Source of the DNA: Ascidia mentula
Taxonomy: Eukaryota > Chordata > Ascidiacea > Phlebobranchia > Ascidiidae
Assembly: GCA_947561715.1 (NCBI GenBank)
Contig: OX387204.1
Location: 2,423,001-2,487,000 of the forward strand
Direction of reading: 5' to 3'
DNA: 64,000 bases
The translations under genes and the position numbers were made by a program. The notes beneath the pieces were generated by a model. The model was not told the origin of the DNA and did not search any database. It saw nothing but the letters and a program-made list of their open reading frames with translations. Below, one piece after another: positions 5,114 through 61,200 of the stretch. Each line of letters begins with the position of its first letter. The first letter of the stretch is position 1.

Positions 5114-8100
5114 TTAGGCGAACGACCAGATCTCGAAGAGGCAAGCGGCGGAATGCATGCGAAAGAAAATGCTCAGCGGCCTACATATCATGGCTATGGT
5201 GGTCCAAACGCTCGTGGAATAATACATGTGATTGTAAGTGTACACCAGGAACGCTGTGCCCTCTAGTGACCAGAACATCCATAGGCAAGCGTTGGACACA
5301 ATCAGATAAATGACGACGTTTCGTAGAAGCAATCGAGATCTGTCTGGATGGGCGACCTTGGTTTCAGTGACGATCTTAATTGGGTGGTTCATGTTGTTGG
5401 TGACGTTGCCATACGCGGCTGTTCCAACATCTGAGCGCACTCCCTCCAGGTCATCCATGAACACAGTGTTGTCATACCCAGAATCCGAGTCCACGCGTTC
5501 GCGCGCGCGGCCAATCGGCGATTTCCTGTCGTTGCTGTTGTGATCGCGCATTGGGCCAACTACGGCCACTTGCGGCGCACTTTCGTTTGTGACGTCACCA
5601 CGAGCTGAGGATTCACCGGTAGTGGTTTCGACTGGGTCGCTTCGAGACGAACTTGGGGTGTTACTGTTTCCGCTGTTTTGCTGAGGTTGAAAAGATGGCT
5701 CTTTTATCTTCTCGTCTTCTTCCTGCTCCTCCAGGCTCTCGATCTCGTCCATCCGCTCCATCGGAGGACTCCGGATCGCTGTAAGACTCGCAGTCATGAG
5801 TGCGGCAGGACGAAGACCGCTTGCTATCCCGAAGCGATTCGATAAACCCCCGTAGTAACTTTGACCGTCCGTCGTTCTTCCGTCATCACCGAATTCCGAC
5901 GTATTGCTGCGCACTGCCGCAGTTTGTACCCTGACAATACAACATTCCACTAAAATAAATAAGCATAGAGACAATAATACGAATTTGTAATTTCATAGTA
6001 TATTTATTATGCAGCTCATAAAAAAAATCTACTAAGTCAGTGCACTGTTTGGTGTGAGATACTAAGCGTGGCGTTTCTTAGTTTATCACAAAGACTCTAC
6101 ACTTATAGAGATGCGAATGTATATTTTCCTATTTGGTTAGAAGAAATTTCATAATCTTCACGTTGACCCATACATTACGATCGTTAACTTGCGTTTCATA
6201 CCTCTTGACCTCTGCCGCAGTTTCAAGGTCATCATCTGAGGTGAGCGGCGCACGTCTCATTCCATACAGAATGAATAGGACCTACAAGCAACAAGGTGAT
6301 GCATGGGCATACGGTTCGGCTGTATTTGTTTAAATTTCCACAATTCCGATACGTAACAATGGGAAACGCAGGTGATATGTGCCAAAAATACACATGTTGC
6401 ATAAAGAATTTTTTAAATTTTCGTTATCAAATTTAATACATTCCCACCACATAACTTGTTTGACGACGTGAGATTCAAATATGTTTATAATTTAGTCACA
6501 TAAGTTTCGGACCGTTCTGCGGGAGCTGCGCGAAACTAACCTGAACGACACATTGAAAAATGTCACAAAATGGCCAGATTACGTTCAGGAACCAGGAGTT
6601 GACGACTTTATTCTCCGGGGTGATGGAGTTCGCGAGGATGTTGAAGAGTCCAACGAGCACAGGACCGACCAGGCACAGCATGAGAAGGACGCTGTCCAGA
6701 TGGTCTTCGTCGCCACTTTTAAAACCGTTCGAGTTTTTCTTGAAAAGGTAAAATCCCAGGAGAGAGGCGGCCACCATTGTAAGTTCGAACACGATCTGCA
6801 AACGGTAATTTCGAAAATATTAAAATTGGGGGAAAACGCAACTCAAGATTGGAGTCCTTTATCTAGAAAGTACGCCATCGTTGGTGCATTCATTTTGAAA
6901 CTTCATTCGTTTAATCAAATCCTCTTATTTGCTATAAGTTGTACAAGGAATGAGGCAATATCGTCGACTGCAAAGTCATCACAATGTTGCATATTCTTTG
7001 TCTGCAAGACCGTAATCAGTAAACAGCTGCACTGATGAGATCTGATTGGTCGAAGCAATGTGCGCAACTGTATACAGCTTATTTGTTGTAAGTTGTCACG
7101 TTTTTTATCTTTAACTTTTAATACTATCGTTACAGTAGCGTTTTTTTTAATACTACACAAAATTAGGCGCCCACCAGAAAGATGTTGTAGATAGTGAGGT
7201 ATCTGCTCTCAGTAAAGTAAGTTCTCTCCTCGGCGGGCAAACCGGAATTGCCCGTTCCCAAGACGACCATGACTACGATGCAAGCGAATATTGCCAAACC
7301 CCCGAATATTGCACCTAGGAAGAGAAATAGTTAGAGTCGGAATCAAAACATATTGAAAAACTTTCCAGCAGTGTTCAAAAGGCGTAAAGGCAGTCATATA
7401 TTGATAGATGCAAAGACAACAAAAACATAATTGAAAGATCGTAACATTCTCTTGCACAAAGTATTTCCCCCACACAGGGGTTCTAAGCTGGGTGGAAGGG
7501 GAATTCCCATTTAGGAGGTAATTTTGTTTAAACTGTAATTGGATTTATTTGTGATTATGAGGTCATAATTGCTTGAATTGTTTTAATATGCAATTAATAC
7601 TGTTTCTGCATGTGAGATGACCGGTAAGACGAAAATAAGCTGCTCTTCCTAATAAACTGATATAACTAACTATTTGCCAACTAAATTACCGGTGGAGGGA
7701 ATTTAACTGTTAATATTGTGTTAAGGTAGTGTTTCCCAATCGGTGGTACGTGTACCACTAGGTACGCGACGACATTCCAGGTGGTACGCGCGCACCTTTC
7801 GCAATTTGTGGATATGTTCGAGTTTATAAAATCGTAAGTGACCTCAAAATGTTTGTTCCTCTAACTCTAGGTTGCTTTGAAACACTCAACTAGGTGGTAC
7901 GCGTCGAAATTGTTTTACCTCCAAGTGATACGCAACCACAAAAAGGTTAAGAGCCTTAACATCCTTATTCGCCTTAACATCCTTATTCGTGCGTACCATG
8001 ACAATGTTTTTTCCCCGGGAAGCGTTATCAGCAGTGGACAGCAGAATCGGGTTTTACGACCTTATAGCAAGCACGCGATTTCACCTCGTTCGCACGCGAT

Positions 8101-11100
8101 AGCTGAAAATTAGTTGCAGTAAAAGCCGTAAAAAGGAGCTCGCAAACAAGAAGAGTTTGTGTGTAAAACAATCGCAACCCTAGTAGAGGTCGGATATTCC
8201 ATCTGAGCACTTCGCTACTTGAATATTTAACGACGCCTCATCCAAACCGCTTGTTTTTTCATTCAGTTGCGCTGTCATAACGCCGAGTTAGATTTACGAC
8301 TTGGGAATGGAGTTTGGAGCTGCATGTGTCGTAACTTTAACGGCGTTAGGTAGACTGCACTGTGGGGTTGATTGGGACATTTTTATCGGAATTGGTTTTA
8401 ATAGAAGTCGTCGTTTCTGACGTAAAAACAAACAATCGTGACGGGATATGATTCGAGTTATTTATCGCCATGCTAAAAAGTTTAGGGAACCTGTCAAATA
8501 TTTCAAAGCTATTATTTATGGAGTTATAATATACTGATAATGACTTTGACCGCATTGCAACGACCCACAATGTTTGACTTGCTGACGGAATAATATCGTT
8601 AAGGGTTAATGCAAACAGAGCCAAGCGTCATAGGGGATTATTATAAGTGAGTAGTTAAATATCTGAATACCGATGTGTCTCAGTATTGGATGTTTGACAT
8701 GCATAAGAAGGGTTCCATCAGAAATATTTGGAGCGAATGGGCAGGGTTGCTATACTTAACAACCGGTACGCAAATTCTAAGAAAGGTTTCGCACGGTAGC
8801 CTACGAACTCCCTGAATGTCACCACTGCATCTACACATGTATAAATACAGTAGGAAGTTGGTTTAAATCGGCGCTGTTACATTACGCAACTGGATGCACA
8901 TAATATAAAAAGTTTGTATTAAAACTACCGTCCGCGACCAGTAGTGTTTTTTATTGTTAAAACATGTGGATTTTGTTAAAACATATGGATTTTATCCTGT
9001 AAAGTCACCAACATTAGCTGAATCTTCACGTTTCAAATACCATCGAGTGTGTACCTTTGTACGATCTGTAGAACTTGTAACTGGGCTTGACGATATGCTC
9101 GCATACGTGCGGTGCTTTCCCTATGTTGCGCCAAGTGACGTACAGGAGGCAGCAAGCAACCAAACTGAACTCGATGACGAAAGGGAAGAGAAAGGCCTCC
9201 GCAACAGCAACCACTGCACAAAACTCCTGCTCACAAGTACAGTTGCCAGAGAAGAGGATGTCTGTAACAATTAGCAGTTTGTAATTATTTTACTCGCAAC
9301 TTTACAGTCGTTATAGATGACTGGTGTTTTACAACAACTGCTTAGAAATTCCCAAGTCTAAAATCAAGTATATGGAAAACACAACATCATTTCATGAAAT
9401 TCAATAAATCAACAATATGTAGTTAACGCAGATGTGTATCATGTCGTTCCATGACAAGGATCGTCCTAGTGCGAACGGCCGTTACAGGGTGTCTATCGAA
9501 CATATAGATCTGTCTTGTCTGATTGCGGTGGTGGAGATACACGATGTAAACGTGTAAGGACGCCTGATAAGTTGTGCGCTTGTACACCAGAGGTATCTAA
9601 TATATCCGCTCTAACTACTAAGCTCCCGCAGAGCAGTGGGTTTGGTTTGCCCAGAGTCACAAGTTCAAACTAGGGGTATTATTTTTCACATCTCGTTTGG
9701 ACTTGTCAGGAAAAAGTGGCATTGATCCAGCTTTAGGTGCGATGCCAGTGAAACCAACACGCAAGCCCAAGTTGAATCGCTAATGAACGTCGATTTGTTG
9801 TAACAACAAATTTACAAACCTTGTCCTCCAGCTCTTTCAATCGGGTAATCTGCAAAACAAAAAATCCGTTTTTGGTTAAAAATTTCCTCACCTTGTTTTT
9901 TTTTATTTTCATTGTTAAAATTCTGAAAATTTAAGCGTTTTTAAATCAGATAACGCGTTGCTTTGTAACTTAAATACGATTATTTTTTGTATTTCATTGA
10001 AAAGGAGTTAACACTTTTTTGCAATTACAAATTTTCATGAAAACAATAGAAATCTTACGGGCCGGACTGAAGGAGGGATATCCGCTGTACGCTTGTCGGA
10101 TCGGAGAATCAAGTAGGCTCAAGTTGTTGTTATGAGGAGCCTCAGTGACGTAATCATTCGATGTTGAGTGCTGGCTTTCGCTATGCATCAGAGCAGCCTC
10201 AGTCTCGTCGGCGATGGTCGCGATCCATATCGACATATTCGTAGCAACCACTTGCATGACACCAAACCTTGCAAGTGAGATGTTGAAAATTAGGGGTAGA
10301 GCAGAACGCTTGATTTTTGGTAAAGCTAAGTTTCCCTAACACTTTTAATCTGTTTTGGGGTACAGTTTGATACAGTTGTGCCGGACCGAATCCGAAGTTT
10401 CGGACGTCATTGGATATTAAAGGTATTCATGTTCGGCCGAATCTAAACATATTTTGGCAAATCCCCCACAATTTGCATGGAGACACAGAGCATATGTAAA
10501 CATGAACTCGAATTCACCTCGCAAGAGCCTGGAAATCTTGTATGTAAACTTTCGAGTACTGGAAGAGGAAGTTGACTTGGCATATGATGAATATTGCATG
10601 TATGACTGGTACTGTCGCGTACAAAGCCTTCTCTTCGCACAGGGGATTATCGATGCCCAGAAAGGCAATGAATTCCAAGCCGTCCTTGATGATAATGGCG
10701 AGCCCGAACAAGCAAAGTACTCCTGTGTGGTTAATGATGAGTTTCGGTTGATTCAGTGACGGTTTCGGTATATTGCGTAATCAGGACTTGTTTGTATTTC
10801 GTGAATACCATTTGGGGAGATTTGAAAATAACATTTTGGCAATCACAAAATCAAGCTTAGTAACTGCGGTTGCTCGACGAGTGCTCTGTACATATGCAAC
10901 ATGCCATTAACATGCTGCTTAACAATTGAACAACCTTATACAATAAGAGACTAATTTAGCCATTGTTTAAACAATGCCCTTGTTCTAATACCTTTCAGCC
11001 AACGATTGTTGACGTGGTTGCTTTTGGCGAATCCAATTCTCGCTTTGTGCTGGTAGCAAGCTGTGGCAAGCGGTCGACACGCGATCGTCCAAATTAGAGA

Positions 11101-14100
11101 TAGTGTATAAAGGACAATTAGGAAGTAATCAATGAATACAGCGTCAACCTGGTGAAAAAAACGGGATTTAGACTAATGAACCAAATTTCGTTCAAAAACA
11201 ATATCGTTGGTGGAAATATTCGTGTTTTTTTTAACTGCGGGCAGTGGTGCGCAATACTTCGAGCTGTGAGGGCTCATAAGTGCAGTTGGCGCTACTGTCT
11301 GCTTCTATGATTTTTATGGCTCTGTTGTTGTATTTTATTTTTATATTTTTTTGGCAAAAAAAACATGTAATTGTGCTTTGTTGCTGTTTTTCAAATAATT
11401 ATACGAATTGAAAACTATAGCCATATTTTATATTCGACAGGAACATTAAACAACATCCAAACGTTCAAAAAACAGACTTACATCGTGGGTGGTAAACTGA
11501 GTGGTTTTTAATACAGTCATAAGCAGGATGATGTGAAGGGCGTAGAGGCTGGAAAATAGAGACCACGCCGACTGACTGCTGCCCTCTTCCACCGGAGTTT
11601 GAGCCTCCTTTTCCTGCTGACTTAACGTCGCTTCCTCGTGCAATGCCTCCAGCTTGTCCATTTGGGGAAAGCCCCTTGGTTGAGCAAAGAATCAAGTTAA
11701 TTTATGTTGGTGTTGCCTGGTTGAAACATAATCATTTTTTTAGGTAGGGTTTATTTATTGTAGCAGGTCTGTTTGAAATATTACAACAGTTCTTTCGTTT
11801 AGCACTTTCCAGAAAATAATTGCACGTGACGTAATAAGTTTATGATAGAATTTGTAGCGTGCCCAGCCTAATTCAAAAATTGCATCGTAATAAATCAACA
11901 TTATTGAGTATTGGCACTGTAAACCAACAAGCTTAAATTCACCGAGCACGCTCGTAAGTGCATCGAAGGTGCAAGCACGCCCTAGTTATACCGCGCGTGC
12001 GTTCACTTGCTGTGGTAAAAACATAAAATATTCTCTCCTCAAAATAAGCATGCATTCCATGCGAAAAGATCAGCGTTTAAAAGAGCTAAAAATACGCCCG
12101 ACTCCCTTTATTTGAACGTGGCAAAACCCATCTGTTCGTGAATAATCGACGCCCTGAAAAAACTTCCTGAATCGATAACCTCCCATTATTGACGTCAACA
12201 ATAGGAGGGCGTGATTGCGAATTCTCGACCGTCGAGTGCCCTCTGAGCGTTGTCTCGTCAAGTTCAATGTCAAGTGATGACTTGCTGATGACTAATCGGG
12301 AGACTCTCCGACGAAACGAGCCCAGGAAAGTGCCAAGTCACGTCGACGCGGGATTTTCCTCGGCCAAAAAATTGATTTTTTAACCAAACTTTTGAAAAGT
12401 CCGCCATTCTGCCGCGCGAATCTCTTTTGTGACGTAACAAAAGGGGGTTGTGTATTTGGGCAAAGTTTCATGTCAGATCCCAGTGGGCTACAACCTACAT
12501 CAATCATTATGAAATGAAAAATAAATCACACACATGTATGTAAAAAAAATTAGTAGACTGGTGCAGTTGATTTCCTGGAATAAATGTTTAACATTAGTAG
12601 CCCCCTGCACTTTTACCTGTCGACTTGATAGTGCGACGATTTGAGGCGTAAAATATCAATAAAGGGCAATATTTACTTGACGTAGATTTTCGTTGCCCTC
12701 CTGCGAATCATGTAGTGGTCGTTTCCGAGCTGAGTAACGTCATCGTCGACCCGGCGTGGGCCCATCGCGTTTGTTACATCACTTACGGCACTAATGGTCC
12801 TTCGGCGTCCAGTGTGCAAGGCCATGCCGTATCCTATGTCGTCGTCTGAATGAACATCAGTGTTAATATAATATCGTTAAACTGAAATCACTTGTTGTTA
12901 TTTCACTGGATTCGTAACTACTGAAAAAGGCAACGTGGTAACATTCGCCTATTGCGTTATTTGCTTTGTTAATAAGGTATTTTGCAGAAGGTCATGCACA
13001 AAGTGTAATATAGAAATAATATATGTTAAAATACGCTGTGTTGTCAAAAGTTGGTTGCTTCATAGGCCTTATTAGAGGATGCTGAACGACGGTGACGTCA
13101 CAACTAACGACGTCAGGTATACGTAAGTTTACGGCGGCAACAACATGTTATTGCCATGCACCACATTGCTCCGTGTTTGTACAAAATACAAAGTAACAAT
13201 ACAATGTGAGCGTGCGATAGTTGGTTTATTGCTGGTTTACGATCAGGGATTTATGGTTTGACTGGAAAAGTGCAGGCGATTATTCCGCTTGATTAATATT
13301 TATTCGCCTGCAACGAAGGTCGCAAAGCTGTGATTGGTTTGGAGGTGGGGCGGAATATCGCGATACTGAGCGAAAAACGAGAAAGGGATGAATCGCGACA
13401 ATGTTTTTCAAAAAGTAACCTTCACCCTTTTGCGGTGAATCAATTTTTCGCCTTGTTAAGCAGAATTGAAAAAAAAAAATTTCACAGTTCATTATTGGTA
13501 TTTTCACAAAGAAAAATAAAAAAATATTTCATACCCGCTGCAATATCCAAAATGTCATTGTTCGTTAAATTTACAGATTTCCCGTTCTCCCGAAAATTTG
13601 AAGAAATCAAAATTTCACTCGAAAAGCACGAAAACGTGTTTGACAAGCGGGGTGTCAAAGACCAACGTAAAACGATCAAAACATGCTTTAACCTGTTTCA
13701 TCCGGCGCAAATTGCTTGTTTTACTTGAAATTTACTTGTTTTAGTGAAATTACTTTAAAAAGGCAAATCCGAACAAGCACGCGCAGTAGTGTGCTCAGAG
13801 CATGTAGAACAGGTTTGCGAATCATGTTCCCGCGACATTTTAATTCCTCCCCCCCCAACGGACGCAAATACGTGGGAGCGTCGAAACATGAGTTTCGCAT
13901 GTGTTTCAGGAATTTCGAATTCCACACAATACAGATTTGTACTCTTCAAGACACAATTCATAAGTTTTTGTCGAAACGTCTTATTTTAACATGACAGTGT
14001 TAATAACAATATGGGCCAGTCTCTTTATACTCAGAATTCTTTCTTGTAATTAAAAAAAAAACATATTCGGTAAAACGTCTTCCCGGAAAAACATTCATAA

Positions 14101-16952
14101 ATTTTCGAGAGCAGAGCCCTTTCCAGCCATGCAACAAAAGGTAACATTTTCCTGTGGCTACGTAATCAGAAATAGCCTGTGACATTTTAACATATTTCAA
14201 TAAAAGCACTTGCACAGAAACTACCTAGTTTGTGCATTGAAAATCACCAGTGTAGTTTCCACCCAACTTACTTGTCGCGATTGATTCCGGGCCTTCTGAA
14301 AATCCCCAGTTGCCCTCAGCTAAACTGTCGCGTCTTCTCTGTAATGTAAAACAAGCGTGGTGAAATTTGCGGGTTGTTTCGAACGAACGTCGTAACATGC
14401 AAGTTCGCCAGGAATGATTCAAAGAAATAAGAACAGAAAATAGTTTGTCCAGGGTCAAGTCGTTCCTCACTGTTAAAATTTAAATTATTGCCATTAAAGA
14501 AGTACTTTTTGAGCAGGCGGTTTGAACAAACTGTTACAACTCTAAACGCCTCAACAAAAACGGTTTAATCCCTATTTTGGTTTAATCTATTTACTGCACC
14601 TTGAAAAGGACAAGAAAAAAAACTCCAAAGGTTGCAAAAGAACCATAAATTTTCCCATTCTCAATTTAGCTAACGTCACAGATTAAATTCTTCAGTTAGC
14701 CATTAGTCCGTGCATCGCAGGTAGGTTTAGTAAATATAAACCGATTTAAACCAGACGAAGTCAATACCGGTACAGTTTAGGGCCTAAATAGTTAATTTTA
14801 AGTTCAACATCATAAATGTTTTGTGAAAACAAGATTACCGGCATTCTAAACCGCAATTATGTAGACTCTTCTCTGCGAACAACCTGCTTGCGTCAATGCA
14901 GAACAAAATAAATAGAGTCGGGCTATAACGGTATTGACGCTTCCCTAGCAAAGTCCATGGAGGCAGTTTTGCAGCGCCAATTAAAGTAGGTTCGCTGTCC
15001 CAAACATTTTGTCGTTACAAAATCAATTTAACGAGGAAGGTGATTGCCCTGCAGGGCGGTACAACATTTTTAATTCAGTCCTTTCCTTTTTGGACAAATT
15101 AAAAGGGAAAATAATCGGTCATTAAATGCCTCCAACGCCTATATTAACGTCCATCACAAAAAGAACTTTTTTCGCTGCAACTTGTTTTGACCTACCTGAT
15201 TTTGCAGGAGAACAAAAAAATTTCCTCGCACCAAATTCTGTTATATTCAACCTTCGTTCAACCCCGGATCGTTTAGTCGATCCTGTTGACTGTAAAGCGT
15301 CTTTTATACTCAACACGCCGCTCCCATCAACAGCCAAATAAAACCGGTAACCTTCATCGCTAAGCTAGGCTTTGATCGACATTTCATATTTTATGAGCGC
15401 TTTATGGCCGTTTTGCGACCTGTTGAATACACGTTGTAAATGTTGTAAAACCCGGTTTTTGTAACTTGCCAAAACTCGACATTATTCAGCGAAACCGCAA
15501 ACTTTGTCGGGTAATTATTATCGTGGCGACTCAGTGAGCTGTTTGGTCCAAATCTGGCTTGAGATAAACGACACGGTCATTCAAAGGCCTTTGGATTTGT
15601 TACATGTTGCATGAAACGGCCCCTAGTTTTTAGGGTTTCTTTCGACAACGTTTGTCATTAAATTAATGGCAAAAGAATCCGGCGGCTAATAAACAAGTTT
15701 AAGAATTTGAACCCCAACAAAGTTCATCAAAATATTCCCACGTTAACTGTAATTGAGGGGGTTACTTTCATTTCATAATGTTTCGTGTTGTTTTTTCTTG
15801 TAAATTTTTCCTGTTAGTATTTGTACGTTCGTTTTGAAAAGCATTAATAAACTTACACGAAAAGAAACAAAAATTCCGACTGTTTTGTGCCACTAATTAT
15901 CACCCATTATTATATCTGAATAGTGACCTTCAGACAGTAGTGTTGCTACCAATCTGGTTTTATCAATGCCACTGTTAACTGGTGGCTTGTCGGTTCGCTA
16001 ACGACCATACTCAGTTACCAGCTACACGGATGAGACTCTAATAGTTCGAAACAATGTGCACTGTCTGCAGCTCAATTATCATTGTGACGTATTTTCTTCT
16101 AGTATACCTGTTAAGTTTTCAGAAAGGCACGCGTTGAAATTGATGGTGGACAGCGACAATTTGGGACGCAGCCTTGTGGCTCTGAACGTGGTTAAACGCC
16201 GGGGAAAGCAAATGGGGTGGTTATATACCACATAACTTTATGTAGTATATGTTTACAAATCTGTGTTTCCTGTTGGTATCTGTTCCTACATAACACACGT
16301 ACGTGTATTTAACATATGTTTGACCTGGGGTTTTTGACAACGTCGCAAGACGGTTTAATCAGGAACGTGCAGTTCCATCACGCAGATATGACTTTGGCTT
16401 CCGTCGGCGCGCCTTCTTTCAACTTGAATAACGAAATGTTATTTAAATGAGAGACAAATGGATCGCAACCAACCTGTAGTCGCCAAAGAAAAGCCTTGAG
16501 AGATGATTTGGGCGTTAATTAGTGGATTGTTTGATTAATGCGATTTGGGTTTTGACAAACAGTCTTGTTGCGCAAAATTTTAAATACACAATCTTAGGAC
16601 ATTCAACGACGCAACCTGGTTTCGCCTGTAGTTTCGCTCCCAACGTACGAAATTGCTGAGTCATAGGGCTTGACTACGGAGAGATGTGAAAAGGGAGTTT
16701 GTACAAGCAGAATTGGGCTTGTCGAATTAAGTTATCGTTGGAATGAAACAACACGTTGCGCACTGTGTGACACTTCTAACGACTCCAGATATCAACATAG
16801 AATTCGAAAGTCAACTCTAGATATTGCGAACTGTTACGAAGTTAAATGCTATGAGAACCGAGAACTGTTGCCAAAGAAAAATAACTAAAACACCAATAAA
16901 AAAAACAGTTTGAAACACTCACCGAGACGGAATCCATCTCGAAGGTGGACAT
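5114..16952 (-). CDS. otopetrin-family proton channel
   Basis: Thirteen coding exons fit one frame of 836 residues: 16923-16952, 14272-14338, 12677-12845, 11482-11674, 10992-11148, 10518-10722, 10059-10267, 9820-9849, 9055-9213, 7175-7314, 6541-6795, 6202-6281, 5114-5930. Otopetrins are dimeric proton-selective channels with twelve helices. Family matches include SLFSSLYALHIILLM, GLAIIIKDGLEFIAFLG, YATVPVIHAIFIICQVNF, VMQVVATNMSIWI, LFPFVIEFSLVA with a WRNIG motif, and the diagnostic C-terminus FRMHSAACLFEIWSFA. The first three exons encode an Arg/Asp-rich cytosolic N-terminus. The last exon carries a long polar loop (residues about 565-720), rich in Glu and Ser, between the last helices; its length is unusual. 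The start ATG sits in a 30-nt coding exon with a good donor (GTGAGT) behind 2.6 kb of intron, so this exon is the least certain part. Exon 9820-9849 is a 30-nt microexon. Vertebrate OTOP1 is needed for otoconia and sour taste. Confidence 0.92.
7025..7079 (+). ncRNA. hammerhead ribozyme motif, near-complete copy
   Basis: Reads AGCTGCA (stem I), CTGATGA (core), GATC/GGTC stem II around a short loop, GAA then G at position 15.1, a GCA/TGT stem III, the triplet GTA, then TACAGCT closing stem I with one mismatch. All invariant core boxes are present except A15.1 changed to G, which can still wobble-pair with U16.1. It lies in an otopetrin intron, antisense to the gene. Activity is inferred, not shown. 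Confidence 0.7.
7315..9054. other. 1.7-kb otopetrin intron with a hAT-like repeat fragment
   Basis: Intron between two otopetrin exons. Its first 400 bp look like ordinary unique sequence. From about 7728 it carries GTGTTTCCCAATCGGTGGTA followed by repeated GGTACGCG words, a pattern common at the ends of non-autonomous hAT elements. It ends near an 18-bp tandem duplication at 7956-7991. The remaining kilobase shows nothing recognisable. Confidence 0.45.
7728..7995. mobile_element. possible non-autonomous hAT-type fragment
   Basis: Contains the phrase TGTTTCCCAATCGGTGGTA and three GGTACGCG-type words, as at hAT element ends. I do not see the matching inverted end or a clear 8-bp target duplication, so this is a fragment or a misread. 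The unit CCTTAACATCCTTATTCG is directly repeated at 7956-7991. Confidence 0.35.
9581..9755 (+). mobile_element. tRNA-derived SINE, diverged copy
   Basis: The head retains a degenerate tRNA-like stretch (GCTCCCGCAGAGCAGTGGG, then CAAGTTCAAACTAGG as a B box). The body GGACTTGTCAGGAAAAAGTG and GATCCAGCTTTAGG matches the copy at 51.4 kb. It lies in the otopetrin intron upstream of exon 9055-9213. The A box has decayed, so it is an old copy. Confidence 0.6.
13959..14037 (+). repeat. dispersed repeat, GAAACGTC family A, copy 1
   Basis: These 79 bp are identical to 34854-34932 apart from one C/T difference, yet lie 21 kb away in the intron of another gene. They start in CATAAGTTTTTGTCGAAACG and end in CTTTATACTCAGAAT. 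The near identity implies recent mobilisation or gene conversion. No terminal repeats were found. Confidence 0.8.
14339..16922. other. first coding intron of otopetrin (2.6 kb)
   Basis: No coding potential supported by homology. It contains a hammerhead ribozyme copy at 16020-16072. The rest is AT-rich and unremarkable; regulatory elements for otopetrin could lie here but none can be recognised by eye. Confidence 0.45.
16020..16072 (+). ncRNA. hammerhead ribozyme motif, one core change
   Basis: Reads AGCTACA, CGGATGA (U4 to G in the first core box), a GACT...AGTTC stem II, GAAAC, stem III ending in the cleavage triplet GTC, then TGCAGCT closing stem I with six of seven pairs. The U4 change should weaken or abolish catalysis. 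It is antisense within the first coding intron of otopetrin. Confidence 0.65.
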
Positions 16953-32197: not shown

Positions 32198-35100
32198 TCA
32201 TGAAACTGGGTCACCTTCATTGACCTCACTGTCTGCTGATGTTGTTACTTGGGGAATTGTGTTGGTATCAGCATTAACTGTAGTGTCAACTTCAGTCTTG
32301 GTTTCATAGTTAGAATTGTCTGTAGCTGCATTTTTAATGGTTTGGAGTTGATTGTCAGATATTACGACTGTTTCCAGGGGATTCCTTTCACTAGGGGGCG
32401 CTAGACTTTCCGCAATTTCATCCGCAGTAACTTCATTACCGGCAACATTGTCTATCAAAAATTTAATTGGAATTATCCACCAGGTAACAAAGCTACCAAG
32501 TCACAAAGACTCCTGCACCAAATAGTATTTACATACCATTAGAAACTGATTGCTGTTCTGTTGCATTTGTACTTGGAGAGCCCGGCTCGCTAGCTGCAGC
32601 CTTTTCAGATACAACATCTGTTGGAAAAAACATTTTGTTACAATCAGTTCTTACCCCCACTGAACATTACAAGCATCTTACCAGCACTTATTTCAGTGTC
32701 AACATCCTCTTTATTAATTGGATCGTCAGCTACAGGACTTTGGTATGCTGTTTCCATGGTAGCTGCATGCGTTTCTGATGCTGTTTCGTCTTTTGCTGAC
32801 ATCTCTGTTTCCATAGCTGCAGGCTCTTCTTGCAATTCCAGACTAGGAATGTCGTCAGTTTCAGCAGCCAAAGGAGACAGTGATGTTTTTATTGGCGTCT
32901 GTACGAAGAAACGACTTTGTTCGAGAGGGTAGGGTATAAACTTTTATGTGACATTTTTTTCTAAAAGTCTTTCTTCAATCTCTTACAATGAATAAAGCAT
33001 TTTATACCACCTAAAATTCATTGCTATGGAACATTAGTTACACTAATAATGGTAATGTACAAACCTGTACTGGGGGGCCATCATAATAGTCCTCATAACA
33101 GCTGGAGTGGAAGTTGTCATCACCAACTTTAACACAGTTTGTAAATTGCCATTCATCATCGGCTTCACTGTACACAGTTTCAAATGCTTCCTTACATACT
33201 TTGCACGCCTGACAAATGTAAAGAAAGCCGTGTCACATGATGAAATAAAAATTATTATTTTTTTTTATTCGAAGCAGACAAGCCTGATGATTCACATATG
33301 CTATGGGGCTGTGTTTGAATTAAGTAACAATGCTGATGTTTAACAGAATTCAGTGCCACTGACTTAAGCATCCAATATACACAGACGTTATGTGGCAACT
33401 GTTTCAGGCCTTGCAGAGTTCAGCGTGTGGAGCAATTTGTGCATGCTTAGGTCGAAACAGTGGCCATCTGTCTGTAGCTTACACAGCGCATGCTTTTTGT
33501 TTATCATTGTTTTATAGAAACTTACATCTTCACCAGGTCTCCCAGTAAGTGGAACCGTGAGTTCCTCTGTTTCATTATCAGCTTCTTCGCCTTCAAAGAA
33601 GGCGTTTTTATCCCTTTCTGTTGGATCTTCAACTTCTTCATTGCAAATCCAATCCTACATGACAAGAACGTCAATTAACTGCCATTCTTACACAACAGGA
33701 ACTTATCACAACTATCAAATTAATCAAAAGCAGCAAAATAATTTTCCTTACAACAAGAAAAGAAGATTAATTTCTTCAGTTTCAGGTCTGTTACTTACCC
33801 CAGCTGTTGGGTAAATTTCCCTGTGAGCTTGTGCTCCGCCTTCCTTGTCTTTTCGGTTTAACCGGTAATGCCAGTCAAGATGCTCAGCATAAATGTCTGT
33901 TTGTCTTGTGGTAAATCGCAATCCACAAGCTGAACATTGGATCCCAACATACAATCTCTTGACAAGCTCATCATGTCGTCTAAAAATAAATGGTGAAATA
34001 TGGTTAACTCCAAGACACGTATATGAATAGTAAATTAGTTATACAATTGTATACAAGTGATAGCAATAGCAACATTAAACTCACATTTTGAGGTCGGATG
34101 AGAACGTAATCTGCGGCAGATTTGCATCAGGGTCGAAGGTCATCAGATCCTCTTCCAATGGAGAAATGGATCTTGGTCTTTCCTCAACTTTTGGCGGAAC
34201 TTCAACCACAGGCTTCTTGTCAGTGATGACAGGCAACTTGAAACAACAAAAAATAGTCCAATATAAATTAATTACAAAAAACAGAGTTAATCTCTAATTA
34301 GTATATCACAACACAATGCCCTAAATTTTGGGCAACATAAATAATTTATAGGAAATAAATTAGAAATGTTAAATCGTATGTACCTTGTCTACGACTAGCT
34401 GGCTTTGGGCAGCTTTAGCAACAGGCGCGACGGTGTCAGCAACTTTTGAAGTCTCTGAAGTTTTCGGAACTGGACTTTCAGATTTAGTTTCAGAAGCCTT
34501 ACTTGCACCTGGTATAATCCCCATGTTCAGCAGATCGCTGAGCAATTTGTTCACATTCACTTGTTTCATGACGGCCGGTTCACTTTTGGGCTCTGCAGGA
34601 GGCTGGAATGACAAGCAGTAAAGTTGAGAGTTTGCTATTATTTTTTTCTCTTGTACCCAATTTTAAATATAAAATAATATTGATACTGACAAAGCAAGAA
34701 GTCCATTTATTTACCCAAACATAACAATTTTAAGGCACTCAAAACAATTATTAATGAATCATGTTTGTTTAAAAAAGATATCTGTAACGTCGGTCAGGTC
34801 AGTTCCTTATAATGATGGAGCTACACCAACCGCGTCAGTCAAACTGATGATGACATAAGTTTTTGTTGAAACGTCTTATTTTAACATGACAGTGTTAATA
34901 ACAATATGGGCCAGTCTCTTTATACTCAGAATAGTGTCCATGTTTGTAAAAAAGACCAACCTCCGGTTGAGAGCGAACTCTGCTTTCCTCTGCAGGGGGA
35001 TTTCTCAGCTCATGGCGATATCTTTCGTCTGTTTAAAAAACATAAAATTACTCGTTGCACGCATCAGAACACAATGCGTAATATAATCAGATTCTGAAAA

Positions 35101-50388: not shown

Positions 50389-53300
50389 ATGTTGGATAAG
50401 AAAGAAGCGGTGTCAATATTGTCCCGAGCTGAGTTTGAATCAAGCGATGCAAATGAAAATCCAGAATCCTCAACATTAAATTTGGCACGGGCTGGTAAAT
50501 TGCATCGACTAAGTATTATAAAACATGGAGAAGACGCAGCAGAGAAGTCTATTTGTGCGGCCATTGAAATATCAAGATGCTGGAAAGGCTTTTATGCCAG
50601 GTGATGTACTTGCTTTTTTTGATAAATATCATACAATTGGTCAATTATTTGCTTTAGGAAACACATTCAACATGCGTTCACCAAAGATAATAAAATCCAA
50701 GAAAAACAAGTGCCAGAACCTATTAAAGTTGAAGAACCAGTCCCTGTACAGTCAACAGTGTATGAATATCATGAAGTGTCTGACCACTACCTGCAGCAGT
50801 CAGTTCAGGTGCAAATTACAATTAAAAAAAAACCTTTAAATTCTAGACTATGTTATTTTGTGAAACTTGTTGTTCCAGGAAATAGAAATTGTGCAGGAGC
50901 CCTCAGAACAGACAATCTTGTCAGGTAATAATTTTACCACTGATCACAGCACCTCATTTTGTTATGTTTCTGCTATTTTTCCATTTTGTCATATTTCTTT
51001 CTGTAGAAGTTAATGTGAAATCAACCCCACAAAGACTGCCCACACCTCCTCCACCCAAACCTGTAAAACTCATTTCTACAAGAAGTGATGCTGCCACGAT
51101 TGTACAACGTGCTTGGAGAAGACATATTGTAAGACATTAATAACATGACTGCACAAATGTTTTTAAATCTTTTGTTGACTGAAATATTTTACACTACTGT
51201 AGGAATTTCTAGTTTGATTGTATTATAGTGTGCAGGGTGAATAAGAAAAGAAATATATACACATTTCACAGTAATATTACATGCAATGGCATGATCGCCC
51301 CACTGCGCAGGTCCTTGCTTGGAGATCACAGCTATCAAGCTCCTGTAGCTCAGTTGGTAGAGCATTGGGCCTGGTTAGCCCAGGGTCGTGATTTCAAACC
51401 TCACCGGGAGCTTGATTTTTCTAATCTCGCTCCGACTTGTCAGAAAAAAGTGGCTTATCCAGCTAGGCTGCATTGCCTGGGCTGCCAAGCCTGAAAACCT
51501 CATGATGTATATAAACATTTATGATAATAATTCACAGTGTTCAAGCATATGTGCGCAATGACAAGTGTAACCATGACAACAACCTAAAAAGTATCTTTTA
51601 CCCTCAACAGGACATGCAGGTTTTTCGCTACTATCGTGATCTGATCAACTTCCGAGGACAAGGTGATCCAGGTCTTATGTTACGATGCATCAACCCAACT
51701 GAAGCTAAACTGCTTGATGCTGCATCTGGAAGTCATGTGCGGTTTCGTCTTGCTGGTGTAAGTTGTGATACAGCCTCCTTGGTGCCATAACTGGAGTAAT
51801 ATGGTTCCAGTTATGGCGTCTCGAGTATTGGGATTTGGCCGAATATGTGAGTGCTATTCAGTGGAGTTGAATCCGATTAATTTTGATGAATACCATACTT
51901 ACAAATGTTATGTGACCGTAACTGGTGGTCCTAATTACAGCAGTTAATTTAGGAGTTGAATTGGGTGGAATGTTTAAATGGATTTTTACGCTGTGTTGCG
52001 CAGGAAAAATTTCCTCCCAATATTTATTACAAAATATACACCCACCGACCGATTGTTGATATGTGTGCGAACAGCCCCAAAGACTACACTGCCCCGGGTG
52101 CCAAGTCCTTAACTTCAAAGCAAGTCCACAACAGGTAATTTTTAACTTAGGAAATCTGATAAGTTTGAGTTTTTGCTGAAGTTAGAATATTAATTGAGAG
52201 CTGCACACAGGTGTAAACACTGTTTCGACCGGTAAAGTCTCATCAGTGCAGCTGTTGACTGTGGCACTAAGCTAGCTTTTTCAGCAGACACACAGATTTT
52301 GACTTTGTGTTACCTTTCGGTCAACGTCAATCAAATGTGTGCTTTATTAGTCATATTGCCACAGAATGTTAATGTTTTGAGTTCCCATCTTACAATCAGA
52401 TGTGTAATTATGCTTGATATTGACAATACCTTTTCTCAGACACCTTTCCACAAATAAAAATACAAGAAAGAAGGAAGGGTGGTATGCGAGGATTGAAAAC
52501 AATGGTTGGAGATTGGTCTCAGATCGCCTTATTTATGCTTCTATGGTGAGTAAGCAACTTTTATATTTGATAAAAATGAATAAAAAATATTAAGACTAAC
52601 AATACAGCCCAAATAACTGGTCTGAAATTCATTAGCAAACGTTTCGATTGTATTTACAATCAATGTAAATCAAAAAGAATCAAGTTATTAGTGTGTAAGC
52701 TGCAGACAGATGGCCACTGTTTCGACCTAAAAGGTCTCACCAGTGCAGCTGGTGTGCACTTGGTGTGACTTTAGGACGACTTTGCTGACCAAACGGCCAA
52801 GCAAAGACTTCCACTTTGTGGTGACTATACAATCACCGTCATCCGTTGGGCACCAAACTAGGTGCAACCTTACGGAGAAAACAAGGTGGAAACACTATGG
52901 CCAAGCAAAGGTCAACCAATAGTGCCGTCAGTCCCCGTGTCACAATAATCATGTCACAATATTATTGGCTCCACTTTGCTTAACAAGTTATTATTTTCTG
53001 ATTTAAATTGCACCCCAATTTTACTTTTCAGCTATATTTTACGCACAGTTTAATTTCAGGATCCAATAACATGGGATACATCACACAGAACCATGGAGTT
53101 CCACCATGTTAAACTTCAAAGAAAAGCAGACGTGGAACGGAAACGGAGACAGAGGAAAATTCAATGGATGAAGAAGATGTACAAGTATGCTATATGTGTG
53201 GCTGCTCAGCTGGCCGATATTCGACTGTTTAGTGGAAGCTACTCTATCACCTCACCTTGTTTAAAGGGAGGGAATGTTAAGGGCGAAAGAATCTGACCAC

Positions 53301-54690: not shown

Positions 54691-54814
54691 TAATTTAAAG
54701 CTCCTCTCGCAAAAAAACTTGTTTGGACGACGTTTCGGACGGTATTCAACAGACCTTTCGAGCCAGAAGAGCTTTAAATTATTGAGTAATATGCCTGGCA
54801 GCATCAGCAACAGC
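54691..54814 (+). repeat. dispersed repeat, GAAACGTC family B, copy 3, foldback form
   Basis: Arms AATTTAAAGCTC and GAGCTTTAAATT face each other across about 60 bp, so it can form a hairpin. The centre holds GACGACGTTTCGGAC (the GAAACGTC core in reverse) and the end ATATGCCTGGCAGCATCAG matches the copies at 17.5 and 20.2 kb. It lies in an intron of the bHLH gene. Confidence 0.6.
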
Positions 54815-54857
54815 AAACTCATTTCATTTTTTTCCGCGGAAAAATATTTTTACTTAC

Positions 54858-57104
54858 CACTTGTATTCCAATCAGCGACCGTATCCATCTTGCCGCTGAT
54901 AAAATCCTCCACAAATTTTCGTGGTTCTTCGTCGGACTTCAAAATATCCCTGAGCAACCCGATGTAGGCGATTGCCAAGCGAAGCGTGTCGATCTGAAAC
55001 ACGTTGAATGTTAGCTAGCTGGAGTTACTGGTGCAACATTTGACGTAAAAATACAACATACGCCAACACTTTAAAGTCTTTCGGATCTGTCCAAACCAAA
55101 ATACTTATTTTTAAAACTTCAAATGACAAAAGTTTTCCTCTAAAATGTTTGCAGACTTTAATTAAAACAAAAAGTTAATCAATAAGTTAAAAATAAGTAA
55201 AATATGATGTATAAATAACGTGTTGCTGTTGCTGTCAGGCGTATTGCAATTTCAAAAACTATCATTTCATTATTTAAATTCGTAAGAAATAAAAAAATAG
55301 TATTCAGCAGAAAGCCGACAAACCTTTGACAGACGTTTTTCGTAGGGAAATGTCGGTACGCGTTCTCTCAGTTCATCGAAGGCGCAATTAATGCTGACCA
55401 TTCGTTTCCTTTCCCTGTCACTGGCTGTTGTCTTAACCGTCATCTCAGTTTCAACAGAATCATGATTTTTTCTTTGTAGATTTTTGGAACTAAAAATCAC
55501 ACAAGTACATTTCGTTCCAAAGTTCTGCATATTGCATTTAATGTATTGCATTGTAGTTGTGCATACGATTTGTGGTAATATTATAGGAAACATATTTACA
55601 AAATGAAGTCGTACCGTTTTTTCAAATGTCCGCGTTTCGAGGAGCGCGACTTCCGTTTTCTCGAATTCGAAGTCTTTGCCTGGAAGGAGCCGTACAGCGG
55701 TTGCGAATCATACCACGTCTAAGTTAAAAAATAATCCCTTTTCAAGCCTTGAGGTCACCCAGCTATAGTTATAAAAATGACAGTTATGTAACAAAACTGA
55801 GGGTCTCTATTTTCCGAACGTTTGCGTGCGTTCGTTATGACCTAAATTACACAACATTGTACGAAATTCCTCAAAACACACAAAAATTGATAAAAATTAC
55901 CTGGAAGTTGCCGCCCTCCCATGCACGCTCGCTGCTGTCTTCGCCTAATGCTTGCGGCAGAATATCCAAATAGTCACTCTCCGCGATGGCTTTGAGAAAT
56001 TCGCCTTGCTCCGGTGCACCAGGATCAATGTGACAAGACCTCTCCCATGTTTCTGCAAAATAGACTTAATGAATAAAATGCAGTAAAAATGCAAAGGCTG
56101 ACGTTGAAAAATATATTTTTTTAAATTCAGTTTAATATTTGCTGCACATATTTGTATGCTTATGTTCAAATAACAGGTCAATTGCGGTTTTCTGTTTAAA
56201 AACCCCTTTCTGTTTGCAGTGGCACCGGTAATGAGCTGGCAAATATAGGTTATTTATCACATACTAAGAACGACACTGCGTGTACGCCGAACGACATGTA
56301 GTAAATTTGCATTCAAGCAAGACAGTTGTTTATTGAATACCTAGATCAGATTCCGGACCCGATGGTCTATCGAGTTGTCCCATTTCACATTGCTCGTTCG
56401 GTTGCTGTTCTGCATCCGTTTGCAAGTTAAAAGTCCGAAGCTGAATAAAATTACGTAGGTTTTAAAAAACAGCCAGAACATCATTAGACGACTATAACTA
56501 CAGCCATAGCAACATGCGAGGTGAATGACATGCTTTCAATTCAGTCATTATTCCACAGGTAATGTTTGTTTACCTCGTGAAAACTTTTGGCGCCATTATT
56601 TTCATTCTCGGTATCGGGGGATAACCTGTCTGCTTCCTCCACGAAAATCTTTCCTAAATTTCTAAAGGGAAGTTCTTCCGTCAATGACTTCCCGACATCT
56701 TCGTTGGAATCGACCAAAATTGCCCCAAACGCTTCTTTGTAGAAACTATCGTTAAAAATACGAATTTCTACGGCATTGGCGTTTTCGTGTGGCGCGTTTT
56801 CATTTTCTGTCATCTGGTCTTCGTTGTTCAACATACTGAGTGATGTACTCATATTGCCTGTGTTTGTTGCAGTGTTTGTAGGTCCCGAAAGCAGCCGTGC
56901 TTTTATGTGGGAAACGTCTTTAAGATGACAGTTTAATTCTGACTTTTTCTTTTGATTGAAAGTCGCTATAACGGGTATTGGGCAACACATAGCCGTCGCA
57001 ACATCCGATACAGCTGGGTTTGATACGAATCGATCTAATCCCGACAAACTGTTGTCTAATAAAACGCTTTTGCTGTCAAGCGCATCTGAGAACACGTGGT
57101 ATAT
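54858..57104 (-). CDS. PTF1A/Fer-family bHLH transcription factor (both ends uncertain)
   Basis: Six exons are clear and in phase: 56574-57104, 56341-56440, 55901-56052, 55615-55718, 55324-55489, 54858-54993. The bHLH domain crosses the last two: SDRERKRMVSINCAFDELRE, VPTFPYEKRLSKIDTLRLAI, AYIGLLRDIL. The PYEKRLSKIDTLRLAIAYI wording places it with PTF1A and the Fer proteins (class II, E-protein partners), which specify pancreas and neurons. A basic stretch (SRKRKSRSSKRGHLKKR) lies ahead of the domain. The long, acidic, Asn-rich N-terminus has no in-frame ATG at its 5' end. The 57104 boundary looks like an acceptor, so an upstream start exon is expected; alternatively translation begins at the Met near 56990. 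The frame continues past 54858 into a terminal exon near 54511, where a second very short intron may occur. Confidence 0.78.
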
Positions 57105-57145
57105 CTGTTGCCAACGGCCAGAACATCAGCATTTGTATTGTTATC

Positions 57146-57536
57146 ATGGTAAGCGAAGATATTAAAAAAAAGATTTTTAGTGGCGTGAAGGAAGCGCTTG
57201 ATGAAATATGCAGTCACAACCAATTTTTGATAAAAGAAGTCTTAGCTGTATATGCACCTGTGCAGTACATCGCTGAGACGCCTTTTGGTGCAACGCCAAT
57301 TCTGCCAAATCGAGACTTTCAATGGTATTGATGAACAGCGAACAGTTTTCATTTTACACCGAAAACCTACCAATAAATTATTTGCGTTTTTTTGTAAAAA
57401 TATCAAACTAATGCACATTAATTGGTTTATTTTCAGTACCTTTGTGCAGTTACCGAAACAAATGTTTACATCGAAAACAGTTTCTTTTAATATCGTTGGT
57501 GGTCATACGTTGAACAGGACGCATTTTCGTTTTTAG
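57146..57536 (+). CDS. possible small two-exon protein, 92 residues
   Basis: ATG at 57146, exon 57146-57324, donor GTATTG, acceptor TTTTCAG, exon 57437-57536. The translation is of balanced composition (begins MVSEDIKKKIFSGVKEALDE, contains YIAETPFGATPILPNRDFQ) and looks protein-like, but I do not recognise it. It starts 42 bp from the bHLH gene on the opposite strand. It could equally be chance or part of another transcript. Confidence 0.3.
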
Positions 57537-58264
57537 GCCATTATAATGGCCGTGATCAAGTAGTTGCCGATGACGACAATTTGTAGATTAACCTGCAGGC
57601 AGTAAAATTAATCCCGACTATCAAGCGAAGGGAGAGTGATCTATACATGTTTAGATGCTTGCATCCTACTCTGATTGTATTGAACAGTCGCTTCTAATAA
57701 TCCTATTGTTTACTGACCAAGCGTGATATTGTGGGTTGTTTATCCCCTATTTCCGATACTACGCGTTATTTAAAGATTAAATCCCCGTATTAAATCTATG
57801 GTTACATCGATTGGCATTTAACACAGTAAGGTCAGGTCCACAGCCGACGGAATTTTCTTTTGTTTATTTATTTTAATTTGGCGTTCGGGCGCTATCCATT
57901 ACCTTTGTTCGATAAACAAACAAGGCCCAACTTGAGGTTCCAGTCCAGTGTCTAAGATGACACAAAAATGTTCGAAATTTAGAAAAAACTTTTTCACCGT
58001 GTGGCCATGGGATGAAATCCTCAGTTTTCCTTAATTTTACAGAGTTTATTCCGTATAAGTGCACGCACAACTCAACGCGAAATACACAACAATTACTACA
58101 CACCAAAATTCACATTATTGAGTAAAATCTGGGCCTTCATTAACAATATTGGAGTATTTACAAGCTTAATAAATCGACGACATAACAGAAACACGACAGA
58201 CTTGTGTTCAAATAAAAACGTCCCAATTTTCAATATAATTCACACCATATATGGCGTTGTCCTT
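57537..58264. other. intergenic region upstream of the bHLH gene
   Basis: 730 bp that should include the missing 5' exon or promoter of the bHLH gene and the 3' UTR of the ZP gene (minus-strand AATAAA at 58045-58050). No other feature recognised. Confidence 0.4.
58045..58050 (-). terminator. candidate polyadenylation signal of the ZP-domain gene
   Basis: AATAAA on the minus strand about 215 nt after the stop codon. Confidence 0.5.
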
Positions 58265-61200
58265 CTACGGTTCGTACACAGGTGGCTCATCCACGTTTAC
58301 GTCTCCGCCTACAGTACTCTCCGCGTCGACCTTTTCGCAGCAGGATTGACATTGCGGCGGCAAAGCGGTTGTGTTGATGTAGCAGTCTGTGAAGCAAGGT
58401 ATAAGGTAAAGGTTAATTAACTAGCACAACTTTAAAAGTTTGACGATTCGTGCAACCGAAATACGATTTTTTTGCGACTATGACTTTTTAGCTGGCAAGA
58501 TCGTCGTTAGTCAACGCTGCAAGGTGCATTGATATGAACTGATAGGTCGAAACAATGTGCATTGCATGCAGCTTTTTTAGTGGCTGTATTACTTGACACA
58601 ACTTTTTTGATACTTAATATCTTGTATGTAGGCAAGGATTAAAGAATTGCTACAATTATTCACACTGTAAGCGATTGTAGGATAAACAAACAGCAAATCA
58701 ACGTATTAACTACCCTGCAAGTCAAGAGGTGTTTTGGCACTGTGGTGATAAGGAACGATCCCATGGCTAGCATGAAGAAAAGAAGCAGACGGCCTCTGAA
58801 GGTATTGACGCATCAGCAGCAAGCCAACCACCAGAGCAACGGCCCTGCACGACAAAATTAATTGCTGAAAAAATAGCGTTTTGAATACATGACACAGATG
58901 GAATTTACACAGATACTTATCATTGCTTGTATTGTTTTTTTAGATTTGGTTGTACATATTCAACCACATTTCTCCAGGAAACGGAAAAGTTTAAACTACT
59001 AAGCGCGAAAACTTGTGTACAATCATAAAATCTAATTTGTATATCAAGTGGTTAAAGTTTATGTAAATTTGGTCATCGTAAATTTGGTTGCCTTATCTCG
59101 GTCCTAATACAAAAGCACCAAGACATAGCAGGGCCTCAATAACGTTGAATCAAGTTGTTCTGAAAATATAATTTCAGCGTTCCATGGAACAAACGTACAT
59201 TGTACGCTGTTGGACTTGACACCAGAAAACTTACAAAAAGGCAAGGTGGCCCATGACAGTGTAGACTGTTGGAGACATTGAGGGAATCATGACCTCGATT
59301 CTTCTGCTGATCAACTGCATTTCTTCCTCCCCAAAGCTTGCGTCATTCTCTGATCCAACGTTACTACTGATGACGTCATGCTTCGGTTTGCCATCGTCGA
59401 CTGCAAGAAAATATTCATTGATTTCCTCATTTCGCCTCTAAATCATGTCAGTGCAATGTAAGTTAAACGAACACATTCAAACAGTAATGTAACTACTTGC
59501 ATCTATAGCGGCATTACACCCAGATCGTTTTGAACGTAGATGTGAGTCACTGATCAGGAGCTTTGTCAAACGATTACATAAAAATTTGTATATGCACACA
59601 AAGCACTAGCTTTTGACCACAGGTTCAGTCTGGCTGTTGTTTAAAATATATATTTCGCCCTGCAGTTTATGGTTTAGATCTCAATTTTTGAATATTCGTT
59701 ACTTGTTATCACTTGTTTAATGTATTCAACTTACCGTAAATGGGACCGATAGTCTGGGTGACGATATCGTGTTCACCGCCAACATCAGATCGTTTACGGC
59801 GTGACGGCAGGCATCCGGGCGTACATGTGAGACTTGTGTCGGAATCGAGGCATACAAGGAAGGTGGCGTGGACGTAGACCGGCAATTTGTTAACGTTCTA
59901 AGAAAAAGTTGATTGCTATTCATACCCATTGAAATAATGACACAAAAAAATTACTAATTAAGCATGGTTTTTGAAATTAAGAATCTATGGCGTTGTAGTT
60001 GTTTTCTGGTAAATTGTATCGCAAAGACCGAATTCACTTTTAGCATTTTTTTCATTTAATTTCACCTTGATTAGGTTTATTAAATATGGCGCTGCTGTTG
60101 TCGCCATCCATTTAAACTTAAGTAATTTCACGTCTCAGCAAAATGAAAAATAATAAACAACTGTTTTAATATTGAGAGTTGCAGACAGGCGTACACACTG
60201 TTTCAAACTGTAAGGTCTCATCAGTGCAACTGTGGACTGTGGCACTGTGCTAGCTTTTACACCAGCAAGCACACAGATTTCCAGTTTGTGGTACCTTTCA
60301 GTCAAATTGGTACCAAACTGGGTGTGTACACCTGTCTGTAGCTCTCAATAATAATAATGTTTTTTTATGTTGTTACGTAAAGTTATACTGACGCAGTGGG
60401 AATACTCACCGGCACTTGAACATCGCTGGCAAACTGGAACATGTCGAAGCTGGCTCTCACTGTGTGTGGATTCGGTTGTGGCGAGACGAGATTGAAGGTA
60501 TTGTCAGTTGGGCAATTGTTGCTCACCATGGAATACATGGGAGAGCTGTTGGGGCTTGTAGTGGAGGTAGCAACAACTGACACCAATACAAGGGTCAGTC
60601 CGTCGGACAAGGGAACGGTGCCTTCCATGTACATAGTTGTACCGACCATGACCTGGAAATTCATCTTTGTTGGTGGCAGGAATTATGTATCAAAATATAA
60701 CAAAACGCCTTAAAAATACTATGTTCAAACGTTGTCAGTTTTAACATGATACGGTTTCGACTGTGTCGTTTTACTGAAAACAACGCTATTTTGCGCATTT
60801 GCGGTGCATGCACATAGTTAAGTTAAAATGTTCGTCAAGTTTTTTTTTGACCACATAGGGATTTGAACACAGGATATTCTGGCCACGAATCCCGATCAGG
60901 TTTTCTTTTTGGAATATCAGTCAAGCGGTTGACCGATGCCATTTGTTTGGTTTGGAAAAAAATGCATTCACGCATGTTGCAGGGTGGAACAGACAGACTA
61001 ACCGCTGTAAAGCCAGAAAGGGGAGAGCTGTAACTGCTGTCCATGAACAGGTTGAGCGTCAAGGGGTAGTCGGTGACCTGGGTGATGTTTTGCGCAACAA
61101 CAATTCCGTCAGGTTTGAGTGGCCCCAAGATCTCCTCCACAGTGTTCGGGTAGGCGCAGGTTGCGTTGAACTGGAGGGCGAACGGGGTTCCGGATATTGT

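What the first reader, a model, noticed from the sequence alone, without database searches (positions are those of the whole stretch)
7025..60231. A dispersed family of type I hammerhead ribozymes in ascidian introns
Six segments of 53-55 nt (7025, 16020, 52199, 52698, 58521, 60177) share one architecture: AGCTGCA, CTGATGA, a 4-bp stem II beginning G-C, GAAAC, a stem III closed by CTGT, a GTC or GTA triplet, and TGCAGCT pairing with the first word. That is exactly the hammerhead order with stem I open (type I). The core boxes and the three helices are directly visible. Hammerheads are known from animal retrozymes and Penelope-like elements; whether this ascidian family is described I cannot tell.
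Basis: partly seen in the sequence, partly recalled or inferred. Interest (0 to 1): 0.88.

Follow-up and report, generated by a model that had tools for sequence, protein, structure and literature searches.

The report
Ascidian hammerhead retrozymes with Penelope-like ends
The six short motifs are worn copies of a large family of small mobile elements in a sea squirt genome that carry a probable self-cutting RNA motif and whose insertions look like those made by Penelope-type retrotransposons, which bears on how such elements spread in animals.

Summary
The six segments are real and one family. A hammerhead descriptor finds five of them and nothing else in the window; 60 shuffles gave 12 hits in total. 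They are degenerate: only 60177 keeps the whole core plus GTC, with a weakened stem II. An intact core string occurs 1,343 times in the genome, its control never.

The motif sits in a 284-286 bp unit found in tandem, as in animal retrozymes. Many insertions have two arms meeting head to head, hammerheads outward; 21 of 32 independent B insertions are flanked by a repeated 9-16 bp word. Their 3' ends fall about 16 or about 46 nt past the cleavage site: 14 of 14 two-armed B insertions have one of each, 18 of 18 one-armed have the short one. Family A follows less cleanly. This is the published "tail" signature of Penelope-like elements (PLEs). GIY-YIG elements in long frames are present; 22 of 22 inverted neighbours are divergent.

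Best reading: retrozymes inserted by PLE-type machinery. Cleavage, RNA circles and the helper are inferred; a reverse-transcriptase domain in the GIY-YIG frames was not shown. "Introns" is supported for one copy only. Rfam misses this class.

The parts
7025..7079 (+). degenerate hammerhead copy (GAAGC, GTA), third group; between otopetrin-like exons of a minus-strand gene
   Evidence: exons
16020..16072 (+). degenerate hammerhead copy (CGGATGA, GTC)
33447..33485 (+). 39-nt end fragment of a family B unit (phases 259 to 13)
52187..52332 (-). family A element fragment carrying the 52199 hammerhead
   Evidence: BLAST to 60177
52199..52253 (-). hammerhead copy, core intact but cleavage position G (GTG)
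52687..52995 (.). family B insertion with two head-to-head arms: minus arm of 266 nt, plus arm of 37 nt at 52959-52995; candidate duplication of 8 bp
   Evidence: L032 1588-1896
52698..52751 (-). hammerhead copy of family B (CTGGTGA, GTC)
58521..58573 (+). most degenerate hammerhead copy (TTGATAT, GCA)
   Evidence: not found by the descriptor
60167..60305 (-). family A arm carrying the 60177 hammerhead
60177..60231 (-). hammerhead copy with whole core and GTC, stem II weakened
60322..60374 (+). inverted second arm (hammerhead 3' part and tail) of the 60177 insertion
   Evidence: arms 60146-60198 and 60322-60374, 77% complementary

Best explanation
These are decayed copies of non-autonomous retroelements of the retrozyme kind. 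A 284-286 nt unit carries a short type I hammerhead. Tandem transcripts are expected to be cut by it into unit RNAs that the host may close into circles (inferred). A Penelope-like enzyme supplied by the genome's GIY-YIG elements cuts a target with a stagger of roughly 9-16 bp and starts copying a circle or uncut multimer at one of two points, about 16 and about 46 nt past the cleavage site (inferred from insertion structure). When both broken ends prime, two cDNAs meet head to head and give inverted arms with hammerheads outward, usually one end of each type; when one primes, a single, often 5'-truncated or multi-unit copy results.
For: Tandem units: L059, L092, six hammerheads 285-286 bp apart on C1. 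Inverted neighbours always divergent: 11 of 11 among the 100 listed of 1,343 pattern sites. Two end classes: 14 of 14 two-armed B insertions discordant, 18 of 18 one-armed short (composite; in the strict, 81 alone, 11 of 11 with both ends measured). Flanking word of 9 bp or more in 23 of 34 B rows (21 of 32 without duplicates; 9 of 14 two-armed) against 16 of 1,122 mismatched pairs. GIY-YIG matches: 150 scored of 382, 27 of them in open frames of 700 aa or more by my count, in tandem arrays of period 2,870 and 3,493; 22 divergent and 0 convergent inverted neighbours within 6 kb. All five pLTR pieces carry a CTGANGA..GAAA core on the sense strand, none on the other. In L009 a solo pLTR (81-85% identical to the 892-aa type) has two head-to-head arms ending 39 nt apart, with a 9-bp repeated flank read by eye. 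Same signature in print for PLEs (PMC3846280 passages; PMC11167929 main text).
Against: No reverse-transcriptase domain was shown in the GIY-YIG frames: none of their places is among the 150 RVT_1 matches scored of 1,254, and Pfam found only GIY-YIG in one 283-aa piece and nothing in a 212-aa piece. No PLE piece shares sequence with the A or B unit (best E 0.066). Family A obeys the two-tail rule less well: 5 of 6 resolved in the strict count, with L021 against and L004, L005 and L016 unresolved, 8 of 9 in a looser one; five one-armed A copies have the long tail; flanking words of 9 bp or more in 9 of 33 A rows against 13 of 1,056. L036 has a long end at 75-85, off the second point. No cleavage, transcript or circle was measured. 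Covariation was not shown.
Confidence: 0.72

Rival explanations
1. A MITE-like DNA transposon whose terminal inverted repeats contain a hammerhead-like sequence by descent or chance.
For: Inverted arms, flanking duplications, no coding frame.
Against: One-armed copies with flanking words (12 of 18 B), arms of different length starting at unrelated phases, tandem units inside an arm, two alternative outer ends.
Confidence: 0.06
2. Retrozymes moved by a LINE-type reverse transcriptase; the two arms arise from twin priming.
For: Duplications of this size are called LINE-like for Nematostella retrozymes (PMC4918200 passage); the genome is rich in reverse transcriptase genes (150 scored of 1,254).
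Against: Two fixed 3' ends about 30 nt apart and divergent tandem arms are the printed PLE signature and occur in this genome's GIY-YIG elements.
Confidence: 0.15
3. Inverted arms come from self-priming of an antisense template, as proposed for rotifer PLEs (PMC3846280), not from priming at both broken ends.
For: Head-to-head arms are what that model predicts.
Against: Inner phases of the two arms look unrelated: circular distance fits uniform (KS p 0.58), 2 of 14 within 20 nt; one short and one long end is not predicted.
Confidence: 0.15
4. The conserved structure is an extended hairpin (CACUG with CAGUG around stem II) and not a working hammerhead.
For: RNAfold prefers it for B and the longer A variant; TG after CAG, not needed by the hammerhead, is kept; in 58521 both partners changed together.
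Against: It does not explain the 7-bp outer stem, U16.1 or the H17 rule (77 of 78); most of it follows from C3-U4-G5 plus a CAG/CUG stem III; the short A form folds as a hammerhead.
Confidence: 0.12

Closest known systems
Metazoan non-LTR retrozymes (Cervera and de la Pena 2020, PMC7229834; abstract, sections 13 and 17 read)
   Same: Type I hammerhead in non-coding units of a few hundred bp, tandem copies, no LTR, low G+C; PLEs named there as likely helpers.
   Different: Here head-to-head arms with two end classes; a search for retrozyme with head-to-head found no paper. Expression and circles are shown there, not here.
Penelope-like elements with pLTRs and tail (PMC3846280 passages; PMC11167929 main text)
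   Same: Tandem and head-to-head arms, short target duplication, an extra 30-40 nt tail on one of the two ends, hammerhead in the repeat.
   Different: The unit has no coding frame to mention and is 284-286 bp; its hammerhead has a 4-bp stem III with a loop, while PLE hammerheads are described as minimal, lacking helix III (PMC7761336 passages).
Type I hammerhead loci in Didemnum vexillum (PMC8704543, one passage)
   Same: Type I hammerheads in a tunicate genome.
   Different: Nine loci listed from a model search; the passage describes no element.

Membership tests
Type I hammerhead ribozyme | Core boxes CUGANGA, GAA and U16.1-H17 joined by three stems, stem I open | tested here: met
   Descriptor; alignment A2; 50 of 78 distinct copies have the core, GAAAC, U16.1 and H17 intact
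Type I hammerhead ribozyme | Match to a curated covariance model | tested here: not met
   Below gathering scores; the cores in PLE pieces L095, L096, L097 and L099 also unmatched
Type I hammerhead ribozyme | Compensatory changes in the stems | tested here: inconclusive
   copies too alike, 2 pairs with changes on both sides, not above shuffles
Type I hammerhead ribozyme | Self-cleavage | not testable with these tools
   Needs transcripts
Non-LTR retrozyme | Small non-coding tandem unit with a type I hammerhead per unit | tested here: met
   Units of 284 and 286 bp; six in a row on C1
Non-LTR retrozyme | Unit-length linear and circular RNA | not testable with these tools
   No RNA data. Indirect: copies run across the cleavage site; 4 of 18 one-armed B copies are one near-exact circuit, p 0.004, noticed after the fact
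Penelope-like insertion signature | Head-to-head arms, target duplication, extra tail on one of the two ends | tested here: met
   Family B; weaker in family A
Penelope-like element | Own frame with reverse transcriptase and GIY-YIG endonuclease | tested here: not met
   The 284-286 bp unit is too short to hold one; so not filed as a PLE
GIY-YIG elements of this genome as PLEs | Reverse-transcriptase domain beside GIY-YIG | tested here: inconclusive
   GIY-YIG met; reverse transcriptase not seen in capped search or in the pieces held

The most novel reading that the evidence does not exclude
Animal retrozymes are satellites of PLEs, and each insertion can record two reverse transcriptions on one RNA circle from two start sites, one per broken DNA end. 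The window's own copy at 52687-52995 fits: one arm runs from phase 18 round to 49, the other from 57 to 21, so together they cover one 284-nt circle about once (9 nt overlap, 2 nt gap), each stopping where the other began. L054 is similar (65 to 14, 22 to 50).
Probability: 0.33. Interest if true: 0.78.

Novelty: new variant of a known kind. Interest (0 to 1): 0.6.

Why it matters
How animal retrozymes insert is open; PLEs were proposed as helpers from shared ribozymes and co-occurrence (PMC7229834 section 17; PMC7761336 passages). A family with over a thousand copies, two fixed ends and flanking duplications gives countable evidence for PLE-type insertion. It also makes the origin of PLE inverted repeats (self-priming or priming from both strands) testable by counting in a genome.

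Tried and rejected
MITE with terminal inverted repeats: rejected on arm phases, one-armed copies and tandem arms. Self-priming: inner phases look independent. Covariation in close copies: uninformative; I chose 21 diverged rows but did not test them. RF00163 in the genome: silent, and so were its control genomes, so it shows nothing. Alignment with +1/-1 scores over-extends 3' ends; its tail phases were not used. 5' ends stopping inside the hammerhead: 5 of 18, not above chance (which used a window a few bases too wide). Folding L061:1876-1929 was out of register and is ignored. Search for the reverse transcriptase of the GIY-YIG frames: not found. Species not identified.

Selection of rows: B loci are the 30 best matches to the window copy plus 3 arrays (L092-L094) fetched because their hits were tandem and inverted, so the share of two-armed insertions is biased upward. 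L037 and L045 were dropped as duplicates of L033 (same flanks). The 14 two-armed and 18 one-armed B rows are those. Their end phases differ by method: one search gives short 8-28 and long 38-85 (L092 left unresolved there, 16); one search gives short 13-28 and long 38-75, with three long ends (L032, L052, L054) unmeasured. The common-word test reaches 9-10 bases into the element, so word lengths are approximate. In family A, L016 is a near copy of L022, and the second arm of L001 (the 60177 copy) was missed. The probability 6e-6 for 14 of 14 assumes independent choice at pooled rates and was computed after seeing the pattern.
Full report
What was checked. The window lies on a 19.7-Mb contig of a 195.8-Mb, 79-contig genome. 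Its mitochondrial COX1 reads best under the ascidian code. All six segments were read and oriented. A profile made from them finds the six, then a fragment at 33448-33483 and weaker relatives. A descriptor of the hammerhead fold finds 7025, 16020, 52199, 52698 and 60177 and nothing else; 60 shuffles give 12 hits, 0.2 per window. The copies are worn: one has G at the cleavage position, one has lost U16.1, several have core changes.

Families. DNA searches of the genome with 60177, 52698 and 7025 gave 55, 71 and 33 matches; 40 of 1,563, 40 of 2,105 and 32 of 32 first-look candidates were scored, so the first two are lower bounds. The string CTGATGAGACCTTNNAGGTCGAAACAGTG occurs 673 plus 670 times, the reversed control never. 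Family A (52199, 60177) and family B (52698) are related: units of 286 and 284 bp, 73% identical over 202 aligned body positions and 89% over 53 hammerhead positions. A third group around 7025 keeps the hammerhead with other flanks. The short clean A motif folds as the hammerhead junction at -16.8 kcal/mol, z -1.35, 22 of 200 shuffles as stable, so stability alone is not remarkable. For B and the long A variant another hairpin is better by 2.3 and 4.1 kcal/mol than the bare hammerhead.

The element. In L059 two B units follow each other, 284 bp from cut to cut; L092 holds 3.4 units in one arm; on C1 six hammerheads stand 285-286 bp apart. Many insertions have two arms in opposite orientation that meet head to head. 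Outer ends of family B lie past the cleavage site in two separate classes, about 16 and about 46 nt. Each of the 14 two-armed B insertions has one of each class; each of the 18 one-armed has the short class. Family A agrees in 5 of 6 resolved two-armed rows (strict) or 8 of 9 (loose); L021 has two short ends, and five one-armed A copies have the long end. A common word of at least 9 bp flanks 23 of 34 B rows against 16 of 1,122 mismatched flank pairs, 6 of these from the duplicated loci; it flanks 9 of 14 two-armed insertions as a unit, so these are single events. In family A it is 9 of 33 against 13 of 1,056.

The helper. The GIY-YIG search scored 150 of 382 candidates; 27 of the 150 lie in open frames of 700-953 aa (my count), some in tandem arrays of period 2,870 or 3,493 bp. 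Of inverted neighbours within 6 kb, 22 are divergent and none convergent. Five pLTR pieces of four types each hold a CTGANGA..GAAA core on the sense strand and none on the other; I read these as minimal PLE hammerheads. In L009 a solo pLTR of the 892-aa type has two head-to-head arms ending 39 nt apart, and ATTATCAAG stands on both sides (the word read by eye). Against this: no reverse-transcriptase domain was shown in these frames, and no PLE piece shares sequence with the A or B unit.

Comparison with print. PMC3846280 (passages) describes PLE inserts closed by an inverted pLTR with a 9-bp duplication and a 31-bp tail on one of the inverted pLTRs, and favours self-priming. PMC11167929 (main text) shows a PLE protein that cuts and extends both strands and starts at two adjacent internal sites that match the tail; it saw no difference in start site between strands, unlike the rule here, and its hammerhead cut only with protein present. 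PMC7229834 (abstract and two sections) describes animal retrozymes and names PLEs as candidates. Searches for tunicate retrozymes: retrozyme with ascidian, 0 papers; retrozyme with tunicate, 1 paper on human ribozymes, seen in the listing only; retrozyme with head-to-head, 0; broader listings. One tunicate paper lists nine type I hammerhead loci. The library holds open-licence papers only, so absence in print is not proven.

Mechanism. Shown: tandem units, two end classes, divergent arms, flanking duplications, and the same structure in one PLE end. Inferred: cleavage, circles, the PLE helper, priming at both broken ends. Copies run through the cleavage site, so the template was a circle or an uncut multimer; 4 of 18 one-armed B copies are one near-exact circuit (p 0.004, noticed after the fact), which favours a circle, though a transcript start at that point would look alike.

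Noticed in passing
window 33391-33654 minus strand with 33447-33485: A family B end fragment overlaps an open frame beside what looks like a coding exon; the frame there reads through the element.
   Followed up: no
C67:6134028-6146916 and C52:9243979-9259647: Tandem arrays of GIY-YIG elements with open frames of 885-953 aa on both sides of a divergent centre; possibly young or active.
   Followed up: partly
L033, L037, L045 (C69:14.91-14.97 Mb): The same B insertion with the same flanks occurs three times within 60 kb: a segmental duplication, useful for dating.
   Followed up: partly
family B unit, hammerhead phases 239-284 and 1-7: A conserved CACUG/CAGUG hairpin competes with the hammerhead fold; it might hold the ribozyme off.
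   Followed up: partly
L061 1796-1942: Rfam WsnRNA46 at E 2e-5 but below its gathering score, across the head-to-head junction; probably the inverted arms, not a real member.
   Followed up: no
window 51339-51412 plus strand: A tRNA gene, 50.6 bits.
   Followed up: no
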